A stretch of 64,000 nt of DNA from Acetobacter pasteurianus subsp. pasteurianus LMG 1262 = NBRC 106471 (GCF_000285275.1 NZ_CADO01000005.1:1-64000), one strand, 5' to 3'. Positions 8,362 through 12,856 are shown, counted from the stretch's first letter. Made by a program: numbers and translations. The notes: generated by a model not told the origin, from the letters alone.

Positions 8362-8395
8362 AAAAAACAGGCTCTACATATTAGAGTAGAGCCTG
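8362..8395 (-). terminator. Rho-independent terminator of the Hint-protein operon
   Basis: Perfect 9-bp inverted repeat CAGGCTCTA / TAGAGCCTG with a 10-nt loop. On the minus strand it is followed by six T, so it would end leftward transcripts coming from the Hint-domain gene that stops at 8424. Confidence 0.85.
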
Positions 8396-8423
8396 CATGA
8401 AAGATAATGATGACTTCAGTTTA

Positions 8424-11400
8424 TCAGGCAGACTGTTTGGCATCAGTCTTGTTCTGATGATTGACCAGAAAAGGCCCTGCTGCGCGAAGAGTTATGGATA
8501 GAATGCCTATGTTAGCGCAGGAGAGATGCTCTTCCAAAGGCAGCAAAGCGTTACCATTGGTCCAGGCGCAATCAGTCCACTCCGTATTATGCCAACCGTC
8601 TGGTTTTTCGGCCTGAAGGTGAGACGTGATCTGATACTGCTGTTTGGCAGAAAGAAGCCGTATATCTCCCACAGCAACACCCATCAGGCGACGGTCATCT
8701 ACAAATGGTCCGATGACGTCTGTTGGACGGTTGGCGCGGGAAATAATGCGCACATATTTGGTGTTGGTTGGCAGCATGAAGCTATAGTGCTGTCCATCCT
8801 GCCGTAAGGGGCGAAGTGTGATCCCGCTTTCTGTGATGAGGTGCAGATCAGGATCATGTATGAGTGCAGCAGATATTGCTTTGCTGGTAGAACAGCTATT
8901 TCGTGCTGCCAGCTTGTGGAACAGGGGTTCAACAAAAGCACGATCTACACACAATGGCGCTCCAGCATCATCTTCCCAATTGTGGCGGGCATTACGTAGC
9001 CGAATAACGGCACCTTCCTGATGGAAAGCGCGGCGGTTGCCTGTATCCAGGTAGCTTTCGGTGAGCATACCATCGGCGGTAATAACGGAATGCCGATCTG
9101 TTTCTACATGATAGTAATCATAGGAAGTGATGGATTTATCGTAAAAAATCGAAATCCCGTTTACCAGCATACGCACGGGTACAAATTTGCCATCAAAGAA
9201 CAGACAGTGCTCAGCGGTAATCAGCATATCCTTGTAAGGCACGCCATCTGCAATGGCATTTTTGCACACACGTACAGGATACCCGGCTTCGGCATCTGGT
9301 AGATATGGGCGAATGTTGCACCGAGCTTTGCCTATCCATACAACTGGCCGTGTGATTTCCTGTTTGGTATGCCAGTCATAGGTAATAACGTCATCACCAG
9401 TAACAAGGTTTTCGACAGCAACATCTCCGTCAGGCGTGCGGATCATACTTCCGCGCAAGAAGCAGACCTCGTAAATCAGGTTGCCATCATCTCCAACAAC
9501 CAAGGCATTACCGTGCTTCGAAACACCATCAATAGTTAAACCTATGGAGTGGCCATTTTTCAGGTTAATCCATACTTTATTAGTATCATTGGCATCATAG
9601 GATACGTCTTGGACATCTCCCTCTTTTATTCCGTCCAGCACAATGCCATCTGAATCTCCACCAGATGTGCCGTTAAAACCAGAAATAACAGTGCTGACAA
9701 TGCCGCCTTCTGTCAGTCCGGAAATAACCAGACCGATATTTGTAGTATCACCATCCATAACAATGGTGCCGCCAGCATCGGAATAAATGGCTACTGTGCC
9801 ACCATCTTGCAAAGTTACGCTACCGCTTAGCTGCCCGCCGCTTTCAATGCTTAATGATGCGCCGTTCTGAATGGTCGCGTTACTTAAAACACCTTGGCTG
9901 TGAATGGTAATTGTTCCGCCGCTTTTAGCGGTCGGATTGATAATTGTTGCACCAGTATTGGCATATTCATTACCACTATCACTTATAATGGCGCTAATAG
10001 AGCTTCCACCCGCAGAAACAGCTTCAAAGGCGTTTGTGCCGCTTACAACAGTGTTGTTTGTTGTGGCGCCATCATAAACAACCAAATTGCCATTTGCGTT
10101 AATTGTCGTGCTTGTTAAAGTTGCATTAGAAGCAAAACCATAACCATTGCTATTAAACGTAACGTTTTGAATTGTGCCACCAGTGGCGCTTAAAGTGCTT
10201 CCATCCTGAAAAGATGCGCCTGTAAGTGTGCCACCAAAAACATTTACACCACCATTACCATCGGAAAGATTGCTTCCGATTCCCGTAATGTCAGTAGCAG
10301 AACCACCATTATAAAGATTAATGAAGCTGCCTGTGTTGATATGCAGGGCAGAAACATTGCCGCCAGAAACATCAAAACCGCCGCCATTATCAGCATTTAT
10401 ATTGGCAACACGTCCACCAGAAACGGTTATGATTCCACTTTGTATGGAGCCATTAACCATTGTCCCATTATCATAAACTGTTGCATAACCACTGATAATT
10501 TTAGCATCGGTGGCAAAACCACCGCTTGATACAATGATATTGGCGTTTGAAGTTAAAATTTGGGCAGAAATACTGCTACCGCCGTTGTCTACATACTCTG
10601 TGCCGCTGCTTGAAACGATATCAGAAGTTGCAGTGCCGCCAGCAGAGATATGCACATATCCTCCGCTTGCTAACATTGCAGAGGTTAAACGGCCACCCTC
10701 ATTAACAATAATGCCACCACTACCATGAGTGGCGTTTACAATAGTGGCACTGCCGCCAGATAGATTGATAATGCCACTTTGAACAGTTGTATTGGTGAGT
10801 GTACCACTTGTATAAACATTTACAGCACCAGCAGAAAGAAGTGTGTCTGATGCGTTGCCACCGGAAATATTAAGTGTGGCATCAGGTTCTTTCAGGGTGG
10901 CAGATATGCTGGTGCCACCACTGTAAACATCCATATTGCCGTTTGAGCCAATAAAGCTTTGTTGCGCTGTGCCACCACCAGAAACTTGAATACTTCCGCC
11001 AGATATGGCGCTGGTAACAGAAACTGTTACACCGCTTTCAATCTGAAGAATCCCGCCATTTGTGGCTGTGGCGCTGGTGACTTGCCCGCCCAGAACATCA
11101 ACGAAAGTACCTGAATCCGTGACTTCAGCGCCAGTTAATGTGGCACCATCATATATGCCGACCCAGCCACCATCTTCATTGGTCCAATTTGTACCGCTTC
11201 CGCCTGAACTTAGATAAGCGTGAGCACCACTTCCTGAAAGGGTAAGATTATTAGCTGTTCCCCAAACAGTTTCCTGCCCATTTACACCAATGATATCATT
11301 ATCACTTATGCCTCCAGAGGAAACGAGGATATTCCCGCCTGCGGTTGCTGATGTAAATGAAATCTCTCCAACAGTTTCAAGTGTACCGCCAGATATTAAT

Positions 11401-11579
11401 GAACTGATGGCAGACCCGTTATCATAAACATGTATGTATCCCCCAGCCTCAGCAGTTACACCGCTGGCTGTGCCGCCTGAGCTCACAAAAAGCCCAACGT
11501 TATTTATAACGGTTCCGCCATTTTGTTCGGTGCTGCTACTGTCACCACCGATGGTGGTATTTTTAGAAATATCCGGCAT
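8424..11579 (-). CDS. Autotransporter-type strand-loop-strand repeat protein with a C-terminal Hint domain
   Basis: 1,051 residues. Residues about 20-640 are degenerate repeats of about 19-20 residues rich in Gly, Ser and Thr (pattern ..VSSGGTA.., ..VYDNGS.., ..ISAGGTATS..), as in AIDA-I/TibA passenger domains, which fold as a beta-helix and are O-glycosylated on repeat serines. Residue 706 begins a Hint (hedgehog/intein) module: Cys706 in CFLRGSMIRTPDGD, a TAEHCLFF segment resembling the intein B-block T-x-x-H, and a late DRHSVITADGMLTE block. About 190 residues of unassigned sequence follow. There is no classical signal peptide and no C-terminal beta-barrel, so this is not an ordinary autotransporter. 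The upstream neighbour, 5 nt away, is the matching O-heptosyltransferase family. Export route and whether Hint self-cleaves are unknown. Confidence 0.85.
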   Translation of the reverse strand: MPDISKNTTIGGDSSSTEQNGGTVINNVGLFVSSGGTASGVTAEAGGYIHVYDNGSAISSLISGGTLETVGEISFTSATAGGNILVSSGGISDNDIIGVNGQETVWGTANNLTLSGSGAHAYLSSGGSGTNWTNEDGGWVGIYDGATLTGAEVTDSGTFVDVLGGQVTSATATNGGILQIESGVTVSVTSAISGGSIQVSGGGTAQQSFIGSNGNMDVYSGGTSISATLKEPDATLNISGGNASDTLLSAGAVNVYTSGTLTNTTVQSGIINLSGGSATIVNATHGSGGIIVNEGGRLTSAMLASGGYVHISAGGTATSDIVSSSGTEYVDNGGSSISAQILTSNANIIVSSGGFATDAKIISGYATVYDNGTMVNGSIQSGIITVSGGRVANINADNGGGFDVSGGNVSALHINTGSFINLYNGGSATDITGIGSNLSDGNGGVNVFGGTLTGASFQDGSTLSATGGTIQNVTFNSNGYGFASNATLTSTTINANGNLVVYDGATTNNTVVSGTNAFEAVSAGGSSISAIISDSGNEYANTGATIINPTAKSGGTITIHSQGVLSNATIQNGASLSIESGGQLSGSVTLQDGGTVAIYSDAGGTIVMDGDTTNIGLVISGLTEGGIVSTVISGFNGTSGGDSDGIVLDGIKEGDVQDVSYDANDTNKVWINLKNGHSIGLTIDGVSKHGNALVVGDDGNLIYEVCFLRGSMIRTPDGDVAVENLVTGDDVITYDWHTKQEITRPVVWIGKARCNIRPYLPDAEAGYPVRVCKNAIADGVPYKDMLITAEHCLFFDGKFVPVRMLVNGISIFYDKSITSYDYYHVETDRHSVITADGMLTESYLDTGNRRAFHQEGAVIRLRNARHNWEDDAGAPLCVDRAFVEPLFHKLAARNSCSTSKAISAALIHDPDLHLITESGITLRPLRQDGQHYSFMLPTNTKYVRIISRANRPTDVIGPFVDDRRLMGVAVGDIRLLSAKQQYQITSHLQAEKPDGWHNTEWTDCAWTNGNALLPLEEHLSCANIGILSITLRAAGPFLVNHQNKTDAKQSA

Positions 11580-11584
11580 ATTCG

Positions 11585-12856
11585 TTATCTTTTATGAACA
11601 AGAGGTTTTATTGTTGCAATGACTTGCTGAGCCGTAATAAGGCGCGTGCATTCAAACTGGCGCGGTGTATTGGCATGCCGTGGGCACCACAGAAAATCAT
11701 GGTGGTCAAACCGTTCTTTCGGATCATTCCAGCAGGAGTTACAGGTATGCCAGTTAATGATACGGAAAGGTGTTTCAAATTCGGTTGTCGGGTGGCTAAA
11801 GCCCGCAATCATCACCACAGGGGTTCCGGTGGACCATGCCAGCCAGGACAGGCCAGAGCCAAGCCCGATGAAAAACGCAGCATGCTTTAACCAGCGTGCT
11901 CGTTCTGTCAGAGGGCGGCTGCCTGTTTGGTCTTCTGCGCCATATGGAATGTGATTCCAGACAATACCAGTGCCATGCACAGTTTTCTGGTCGATACAGA
12001 TTACTCGGTATCCTTGGGCTTTCAGCCATTTAATGACTTCATCCCAGCCTGTTGGATTGTTCCAGTATTTGCACTGGGACGAGGCCTGGGCCGCAATGCA
12101 GACATAAGGCTCCTCAATAGGGCGTCCTTCGTCTGGAAAACTGATTTTTGCAGGTTCTTCCTTTGTGCTGACACCTAAAATATATGCTGCTGTCTTATGC
12201 AATCCTACCAAGCGGAAGTCGGAAGGTTGCCAGTCACAAGCGGCATCATCAAAAAAGAGGCCAAGGTAATAGGTTGCGTAAGCTTGTTCGGTGAGTTTGT
12301 TTGTTCGCACATCATCATGAGTGACAAAATTGATGTGTGGGTAGGCGTTCTGAAATAATGGAATCAGAAGTTCAGACATGGCGCATGTTACCTGTGCTTG
12401 TCGCACTTCTGCAAAACGTGCCGCATAGGGCACCCATGCTAAGGTATCCCCTAATGTTCCGACGGGGAATATAATGAGAACCTGCTTATCTTTTGAATCA
12501 TAAGCATGGGAAAAAACCTGTGTACTGGTAACTTTTCCGTCTTCTGCTGTATGATCCTGCCAGACTGTAATGCCAAAGCGCACGTACCAGCGTTTGGATG
12601 AGCGAACGAGTGCTTGGCTCAGCCCTGCCTGAGCAAACAAGATATTTCCGGTATCCAAATCTGTGAGCTCAATACGCCAGGTCCCTTCAGTTTCTTCCAG
12701 TAAGGGTAGGTGAACCCGGCACCCTTCGTTAAAATCAAACCGAATATTCTTGGGGGCTTGCTGCGTGGGCAGTGCTGCCGCTGTGGGATATGGGGGCGTT
12801 TGTGCTGGCTTGGACTGATTGGCTTGAGTGTTTGTTGCTGTTGTCTGCTCAGTCAT
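11585..12856 (-). CDS. Aah/TibC-family autotransporter O-heptosyltransferase
   Basis: 423-residue cytoplasmic glycosyltransferase of the family that transfers ADP-heptose to serines in strand-loop-strand repeats of AIDA-I/TibA-like passengers. Residues 1-40 are a low-complexity Gln/Thr/Ala/Pro leader. The GT9-like donor half holds FPVGTLGDTLAWVPYAARFA and GLGSGLSWLAWSTGTPVVMI. The family's metal-binding cysteine motif is complete: C372-x2-C375, C391 in DFLWCPRH and C403 in RQFECTRLI. The gene is directly followed (5 nt) by a large repeat protein that fits as its substrate, so the two should be co-transcribed and act as enzyme and target. The donor sugar is inferred from the family; heptose synthesis genes are not in this window. 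Confidence 0.9.
   Translation of the reverse strand: MTEQTTATNTQANQSKPAQTPPYPTAAALPTQQAPKNIRFDFNEGCRVHLPLLEETEGTWRIELTDLDTGNILFAQAGLSQALVRSSKRWYVRFGITVWQDHTAEDGKVTSTQVFSHAYDSKDKQVLIIFPVGTLGDTLAWVPYAARFAEVRQAQVTCAMSELLIPLFQNAYPHINFVTHDDVRTNKLTEQAYATYYLGLFFDDAACDWQPSDFRLVGLHKTAAYILGVSTKEEPAKISFPDEGRPIEEPYVCIAAQASSQCKYWNNPTGWDEVIKWLKAQGYRVICIDQKTVHGTGIVWNHIPYGAEDQTGSRPLTERARWLKHAAFFIGLGSGLSWLAWSTGTPVVMIAGFSHPTTEFETPFRIINWHTCNSCWNDPKERFDHHDFLWCPRHANTPRQFECTRLITAQQVIATIKPLVHKR

What the first reader, a model, noticed from the sequence alone, without database searches (positions are those of the whole stretch)
8424..12856. O-heptosyltransferase coupled to a repeat protein ending in a Hint domain
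An Aah/TibC-type enzyme with its full cysteine motif lies 5 nt upstream of a 1,051-residue AIDA-like repeat protein. Instead of the usual beta-barrel translocator the protein carries a Hint (hedgehog/intein) module at residue 706. Glycosylation of a repeat fibre together with self-processing by Hint would be a surface-modification scheme different from classical AIDA-I/TibA.
Basis: partly seen in the sequence, partly recalled or inferred. Interest (0 to 1): 0.7.

Follow-up and report, generated by a model that had tools for sequence, protein, structure and literature searches.

The report
Sugar-coated repeat protein with self-cleaving module
An acetic-acid bacterium pairs an enzyme that puts heptose sugars on adhesin-like repeats with a repeat protein that has swapped the usual outer-membrane barrel for a hedgehog/intein-type self-cleaving domain; the pairing recurs across the family Acetobacteraceae, but its cleavage, glycosylation and export have never been tested.

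Summary
On the minus strand, a TibC/Aah-type heptosyltransferase (11585-12856; TIGR04414, 624 bits; all four iron-finger cysteines and the catalytic residues kept) ends 5 nt before a 1,051-aa protein (8424-11579). That protein has ~19-residue AIDA/TibA-like repeats, no signal peptide and no barrel. Cys706 starts an intact Hint_2 domain (114 bits; predicted fold matches bacterial intein-like domains, Z 14). The protein does not end in Hint: a conserved ~200-aa domain follows. The pairing recurs across Acetobacteraceae, in about 16 of the 70 family genomes that carry the enzyme, plus further named species. Strand-loop-strand repeats occur in 23/25 enzyme-adjacent Hint proteins against 3/15 non-adjacent paralogues; none of the 25 has a barrel. 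Cys706 and His791 are invariant, the intein C-terminal His-Asn is absent, and dN/dS in Hint is about 0.11.

Most likely: cytosolic serine heptosylation, then export without a type V barrel (perhaps by a conserved substrate-less type I system), then Hint cleavage at Val705-Cys706. Cleavage, glycosylation and export are inferred. I file it as a new variant of a known kind: a BAHT-substrate pair outside the autotransporter class. Hedgehog-like transfer onto a surface acceptor is not excluded.

The parts
11585..12856 (-). BAHT-type O-heptosyltransferase (Aah/TibC family), 423 aa
   Evidence: TIGR04414 624 bits; PF21129 TibC_1st and PF01075; TibC 4RAP E=1e-125; dN/dS 0.05 against a syntenic relative
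11648..11743 (-). iron-finger cysteines C372, C375, C391, C403
   Evidence: aligned to TibC C339/342/358/370; invariant in 12 paired enzymes
12446..12448 (-). catalytic base Asp137 (TibC Asp110)
   Evidence: alignment; role from PMC4358343
11580..11584 (-). 5-nt spacer between the two genes, implying one transcript
   Evidence: the same 5-nt spacing in a syntenic relative, L288
8424..11579 (-). AIDA-like repeat protein with Hint domain, 1,051 aa (107.5 kDa; predicted products 68.7 and 38.8 kDa)
9660..11579 (-). strand-loop-strand (~19-residue) repeat region, residues 1-640, 91 Ser, 76 Thr, no Cys
   Evidence: TibA/Ag43/AIDA-I matches; period 19
9036..9464 (-). Hint_2 domain, residues 706-848
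   Evidence: PF13403 114 bits; AlphaFold2 pLDDT 84.9; Z 14.1 to 2LWY, 11.7 to hedgehog 1AT0
9462..9464 (-). Cys706, predicted nucleophile; predicted cleavage at Val705-Cys706
   Evidence: position; invariant in 25 paired proteins; structurally at intein residue 1
9207..9209 (-). His791 of the block B TxxH motif (TAEH)
   Evidence: invariant in 25 paired proteins
9054..9059 (-). Glu841-Ser842, at or near the place of the intein terminal His-Asn: no Asn for cyclisation
   Evidence: structural alignments end at model residue 148 = S842; E841 invariant
8427..9035 (-). conserved C-terminal beta-rich domain, residues 849-1051, function unknown
   Evidence: alignment; model pLDDT 73.4; no confident fold match
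8367..8396 (-). terminator-like hairpin after the operon
   Evidence: 11-bp stem followed by T run

Best explanation
A two-gene operon for a glycosylated, self-processed surface or secreted fibre. (1) The BAHT enzyme transfers heptose from ADP-heptose to serines in the loops of the AIDA/TibA-like beta-helix while the protein is still in the cytosol. (2) The protein leaves without a Sec signal or type V barrel, most plausibly through the conserved type I secretion apparatus of this family. (3) The Hint domain performs an N-S acyl shift at Cys706 and cleaves at Val705-Cys706, freeing a ~69-kDa acidic glycosylated fibre from a ~39-kDa Hint plus C-terminal fragment. It is not expected to splice, because the terminal His-Asn is missing. 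Shown by sequence: the two genes, their conservation, intact catalytic residues, absent barrel and signal peptide. Inferred: heptosylation, cleavage, export route, surface location.
For: GT family, iron finger and catalytic residues kept; TibC T226 is Ser259 in all 12 aligned. Donor pathway present: HldE adenylyltransferase domain 197.8 bits and HldD 361.8 bits, both over cut-off. The enzyme travels with the repeats: TIGR04415 in 23/25 adjacent against 3/15 non-adjacent Hint proteins. BAHT genes are commonly followed by their substrate (PMC4358343). Hint residues invariant in 25, the Cys present in 68 proteins, dN/dS 0.11 in two relatives, fold confirmed by model; one paralogue that lost Cys and His shows what a dead copy looks like (L044). 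Export: no signal peptide evident, at most one weak barrel hit in the genome, a complete substrate-less ABC-HlyD operon, a five-gene block kept in 18 of 21 genomes viewed, co-occurring with Hint_2 (166/22/23/38, p=3.6e-14; at one genome per genus 68/12/10/11, p=8e-4) and found in 69 of 70 genomes with the enzyme.
Against: No biochemical data exist. Co-occurrence with type I secretion is only partly corrected for ancestry; 22 genomes have Hint_2 without that HlyD, and the operon is not next to the pair. No RTX repeats were reported in 25 paired proteins. The GmhA model found nothing in this genome. The locus is frameshifted or partly deleted in three close relatives, so it is not essential. A Hint domain can be structurally intact without cleaving.
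Confidence: 0.5

Rival explanations
1. The repeat is heptosylated and exported, but Hint is only a structural or export module; the protein stays full length and Cys706 does not react.
For: Hint_2 is a very common C-terminal module here, whatever the N-terminal part (15-18 copies in this genome); no cleavage has been shown for this family in the papers found.
Against: Cys706 and His791 invariant among proteins 26-44% identical to this one; one paralogue lost both together; purifying selection.
Confidence: 0.22
2. Hedgehog-like transfer: the Hint thioester is resolved by a nucleophile on a surface lipid or glycan recruited by the C-terminal domain, which covalently anchors the glycosylated fibre in place of a barrel.
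For: No barrel anchor; no Asn for splicing; a conserved extra domain follows Hint, as in Hog proteins; in four lineages a glycosyltransferase follows Hint instead.
Against: Residue -1 is never Gly; some paired proteins have only a ~55-residue tail after Hint, so the extra domain is dispensable; it has no confident fold match.
Confidence: 0.17
3. A classical AIDA-type autotransporter that lost its barrel and is decaying; the pair is a relic.
For: Frameshift or deletion in three close relatives; an enzyme remnant beside an intact Hint protein on contig C62 of this genome.
Against: The barrel-less, Hint-bearing form recurs throughout Acetobacteraceae, including 1,000-2,000-aa intact proteins; both window genes are intact and show purifying selection.
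Confidence: 0.08
4. The neighbouring enzyme modifies something else (a polyketide, or other repeat proteins elsewhere) and its position is incidental.
For: Related enzymes sit in PKS clusters (PMC8776678); many enzyme genes have no repeat gene beside them.
Against: Recurrent tight linkage with repeat proteins, 23/25 carrying the target-repeat signature; enzymes from PKS clusters lie on other branches of the tree.
Confidence: 0.03

Closest known systems
TibC-TibA and Aah-AIDA-I (BAHT heptosyltransferase plus classical autotransporter; PMC4358343, PMC8151025)
   Same: Enzyme family, iron finger, catalytic residues, strand-loop-strand repeats, enzyme gene just upstream of its substrate
   Different: No signal peptide and no beta-barrel; a Hint domain plus a ~200-aa domain instead; Gly333 where TibC has Pro300, the residue that sets its donor stereoselectivity
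Type B bacterial intein-like (BIL) domains (PMC4031507)
   Same: Hint fold (Z 14.1 to the BIL 2LWY), Cys1, TxxH, no terminal His-Asn; expected cleavage without splicing
   Different: Sits in a repeat protein paired with a heptosyltransferase; belongs to Pfam Hint_2; cleavage not shown
Hedgehog Hint-SRR (Hog) autoprocessing (PMC7906309)
   Same: N-terminal cargo, Hint, then an extra C-terminal domain; no splicing residues; Z 11.7 to 1AT0
   Different: Residue -1 is Val, not Gly; the C-terminal domain is not recognisably an SRR; no adduct known
Beta-group PKS clusters of Acetobacteraceae with O-heptosyltransferase and hint-domain genes (PMC8776678)
   Same: Same two gene families noted near one another in the same bacterial family
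   Different: There the enzymes, often tandem, flank PKS and acyl-ligase genes and lie on separate tree branches; the passage read proposes no glycosylated repeat substrate
Type I secreted proteins with intein-like domains in Ruegeria pomeroyi (PMC2953401)
   Same: Signal-peptide-less exoprotein of an alphaproteobacterium with a Hint-superfamily domain
   Different: RTX repeats and an internal intein-like domain with terminal His-Asn; no heptosyltransferase mentioned in the passages read

Membership tests
BAHT heptosyltransferases (Aah/TibC) | Family model above curated cut-off | tested here: met
   TIGR04414 624 bits against 200
BAHT heptosyltransferases (Aah/TibC) | Four iron-finger cysteines and catalytic/donor residues (TibC D110, T226, K230, R286, W305) | tested here: met
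   C372/375/391/403, D137, K263, R319, W338 kept; T226 is Ser259
BAHT heptosyltransferases (Aah/TibC) | ADP-heptose supply in the same genome | tested here: met
   HldE domain II and HldD over cut-off; no match to the GmhA model
BAHT heptosyltransferases (Aah/TibC) | Serine heptosylation by a dodecameric enzyme | not testable with these tools
   Needs biochemistry
Classical (type Va) AIDA-type autotransporter | C-terminal beta-barrel (PF03797) | tested here: not met
   None in the window protein or 25 paired proteins; the model does find it in Paraburkholderia L189
Classical (type Va) AIDA-type autotransporter | N-terminal signal peptide | tested here: not met
   Hydrophilic N-terminus MPDISKNTTIGGDSSS, no h-region; hydropathy scan only, not a trained predictor
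Classical (type Va) AIDA-type autotransporter | Strand-loop-strand repeats | tested here: met
   TibA 4Q1Q E=1.7e-13, TIGR04415 at cut-off, period 19
Hint superfamily, Pfam Hint_2 | Model score, Hint fold, Cys1 and TxxH | tested here: met
   114 bits; Z up to 14.1; C706 and H791
Intein or type A BIL (splicing) | C-terminal His-Asn | tested here: not met
   Glu841-Ser842 at that place; Glu841 invariant
Type B BIL | Hint without block G residues, cleavage without splicing | tested here: inconclusive
   Sequence part met; cleavage not testable here
Hedgehog Hog domain | Gly-Cys junction | tested here: not met
   Val-Cys; V, P, K, A, T, I, N or S in 68 relatives
Hedgehog Hog domain | Adduct-recognition region after Hint | tested here: inconclusive
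   A conserved C-terminal domain is present; its model had no confident structural match
Type I secretion substrate | RTX calcium-binding repeats | tested here: not met
   No RTX family among matches of 25 paired proteins
Type I secretion substrate | Type I apparatus in the genome | tested here: met
   HlyD TIGR01843 317 bits; ABC-HlyD operon
Type I secretion substrate | Export depends on that apparatus | not testable with these tools
   Needs deletion mutants

The most novel reading that the evidence does not exclude
A bacterial counterpart of hedgehog processing: the heptosylated beta-helical fibre is transferred by Hint from Cys706 to a lipid or glycan on the cell surface, chosen by the C-terminal domain, so that self-catalysed covalent anchoring replaces the autotransporter barrel.
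Probability: 0.15. Interest if true: 0.85.

Novelty: new variant of a known kind. Interest (0 to 1): 0.55.

Why it matters
In the papers found, BAHT enzymes are described as modifiers of type V autotransporters. Here the same enzyme family is matched to a large set of barrel-less, signal-less repeat proteins with a self-processing module, so heptosylation would not be tied to the autotransporter pathway. It gives tractable, non-pathogenic bacteria in which to ask how a cytosolically glycosylated beta-helix is exported, and what the widespread but functionally uncharacterised Hint_2 domain does. If Hint transfers the fibre to a surface molecule, it would be a bacterial protein-anchoring chemistry of hedgehog type.

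Tried and rejected
(1) Hint gene beside a C39-peptidase ABC/HlyD pair on contig C131 as exporter evidence: a Hint gene lay within 1.5 kb at only 5 of the ~24 orthologous HlyD loci, and an active C39 type would expect a double-glycine leader; rejected. (2) The segment before Cys706 as the natural C-terminus of Hint-less relatives: the profile matched such proteins internally, not at their ends. (3) Hint-paired enzymes as one clade: the label needs 21 changes on the tree, not clearly fewer than shuffled labels (mean 24.2; 41 of 500 as low); partner type is exchanged often. (4) Fold of the C-terminal domain: Foldseek had no match under E 0.037, VIA best Z 6.0, both uninformative. (5) Literature: among the held papers, none describing heptosylated Hint proteins was found; searches on Hint_2/PF13403 returned mostly the unrelated HINT2 protein.

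Full report
WHAT IS THERE. On the minus strand two genes lie 5 nt apart: 11585-12856 (423 aa) and 8424-11579 (1,051 aa). A strong hairpin with a T tail follows the second gene (8396-8367), so the two look like one transcription unit. The first protein scores 624 bits against TIGR04414, the Aah/TibC O-heptosyltransferase model (cut-off 200), and aligns over its length with the TibC crystal structures (E~1e-125). TibC coordinates iron with Cys339/342/358/370, all needed for activity, and uses Asp110, Thr226, Lys230, Arg286 and Trp305 (PMC4358343). From the alignment these are C372/375/391/403, D137, S259, K263, R319 and W338 here; all are invariant in 12 enzymes adjacent to Hint genes, with Ser in place of Thr226. 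The residue that makes TibC choosy for ADP-D,D-heptose (Pro300) is Gly333 here; Aah, with Ser there, accepts both isomers. The genome encodes HldE (adenylyltransferase domain) and HldD above their cut-offs; the GmhA model found nothing.

THE SECOND PROTEIN. Residues ~1-640 resemble TibA (4Q1Q, E=1.7e-13) and Ag43, reach the cut-off of the heptosylation-target repeat model TIGR04415, and show a glycine period of 19 residues beyond all 500 shuffles. Residues 705-846 are Hint_2 (114 bits), with Cys706 in first place and TAEH (His791) as block B. A model of residues 695-1051 (pLDDT 84.9, pTM 0.79) matches bacterial intein-like domains (Z 14.1), inteins and hedgehog Hint (Z 11.7), with Cys706 at intein residue 1 or hedgehog Cys258, and many alignments ending at Ser842, where inteins have the terminal Asn. 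Glu841-Ser842 therefore stands at or near the place of His-Asn: splicing by Asn cyclisation is not expected, N-terminal cleavage is. Residue -1 is Val, and never Gly in 68 relatives. About 200 further residues follow, well conserved, predicted as a beta-rich domain without a confident structural match. No barrel and no signal peptide are evident.

CONSERVATION. In 249 genomes of the family, 70 carry the enzyme above cut-off and 188 carry Hint_2; 69 of the 70 have both. The window and about 16 further loci from that sample have a Hint protein directly after the enzyme gene, and named species add more: Acetobacter farinalis, A. orleanensis, A. malorum, Gluconacetobacter asukensis, G. dulcium, Gluconobacter sphaericus, Acidisphaera. 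Some loci carry the Hint gene upstream instead (e.g. A. pomorum). Classical barrel-ended partners were seen in Burkholderiaceae: Paraburkholderia acidicola has PF03797 at E=3e-42; three others end in an aromatic residue but PF03797 did not call them. A control separates cause from background: of 25 enzyme-adjacent Hint proteins 23 carry TIGR04415 repeats and none a barrel, whereas only 3 of 15 non-adjacent Hint paralogues of this genome carry them. So the enzyme follows the repeats, and Hint is the family's common C-terminal module. On an enzyme tree the Hint pairing is scattered (21 changes): partners are exchanged often. The close relatives show a fluid locus: one has a syntenic copy with the same 5-nt spacing but a frameshift in the repeats, one keeps the enzyme without most of the repeat gene, one keeps only the Hint part. 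Even so, dN/dS is 0.05 (enzyme), 0.15 (repeats), 0.11 (Hint) and 0.20-0.37 (C-terminal domain); these include broken copies, so they describe the past rather than the present.

HOW IT MOST LIKELY WORKS. Shown: gene pair, intact active sites, conservation, missing barrel. Inferred in order: (a) heptosylation of serines in the beta-helix loops in the cytosol, as for TibA and AIDA-I (very likely); (b) export without type V machinery; (c) cleavage at Val705-Cys706 by N-S acyl shift, giving 68.7- and 38.8-kDa products. For (b), this genome has at most one weak barrel hit but a complete ABC-HlyD operon followed by Sel1-repeat, double glycosyltransferase and ChW-domain genes, without a substrate gene beside it. 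The same five genes stand together in 18 of the 21 genomes viewed. Its HlyD co-occurs with Hint_2 (166 both, 22 and 23 alone, 38 neither; with one genome per genus 68/12/10/11, p=8e-4). This is association, not proof, and ancestry is only partly removed. In Ruegeria a signal-less type I exoprotein bears an intein-like domain (PMC2953401), which suggests that the combination is feasible.

WHAT IS KNOWN. BAHTs are described as autotransporter modifiers (PMC4358343, PMC8151025). Type B BILs cleave without splicing (PMC4031507). O-heptosyltransferase and hint-domain genes were noted in Acetobacteraceae PKS clusters (PMC8776678) without a link to glycosylated repeat proteins. A Hint protein of unknown function was among the mutated genes of a cellulose-producing strain (PMC11999647). 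I found no paper that tests or proposes heptosylation of Hint proteins, within an open-access library only.

VERDICT. Real, conserved and intact; a new variant of the BAHT-substrate pair, filed outside the autotransporter class because two defining features were tested and not met. Hint activity and its chemistry (hydrolysis or transfer) are the open and directly testable questions.

Noticed in passing
L045:4687-9126 (own contig C108); L113:2053-5508; L163:6669-11456; L199:1843-9762: Hint proteins with a ~700-aa tail; in L045 the tail holds a group-1 glycosyltransferase, so repeat region, Hint and glycosyltransferase are one protein; the tails are 45-57% identical between lineages.
   Followed up: partly
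L082, L087, L088, L118, L121-L129: Tandem TibC-type enzymes beside AMP-ligase genes, in L082 with a PKS, in other Acetobacteraceae; some have two ~750-aa Hint proteins divergently nearby.
   Followed up: partly
L044:5866-6966 (own contig C108): A Hint_2 paralogue that has lost both the catalytic Cys and the block B His: an apparently inactive copy.
   Followed up: no
L254:1043-10961 (own contig C130): Conserved five-gene block ABC-HlyD-Sel1-glycosyltransferase-ChW protein in Acetobacteraceae with no substrate gene beside it.
   Followed up: partly
L052:5460-10952 (own contig C131): A Hint gene divergent from an HlyD and a C39-peptidase ABC transporter; adjacency seen only in a few close relatives.
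   Followed up: yes
L053:58-2778 (own contig C62): A short remnant of a TibC-type gene beside an intact 803-aa Hint protein: a third, decayed pair in this genome.
   Followed up: no
L050:1-3986 (own contig C121): A second pair in this genome, genes overlapping by 4 nt, Hint protein cut by the contig end.
   Followed up: no
L288, L289, L290: Syntenic copies in close relatives: one frameshifted in the repeats, one with the enzyme but most of the repeat gene missing, one with only the Hint part.
   Followed up: partly
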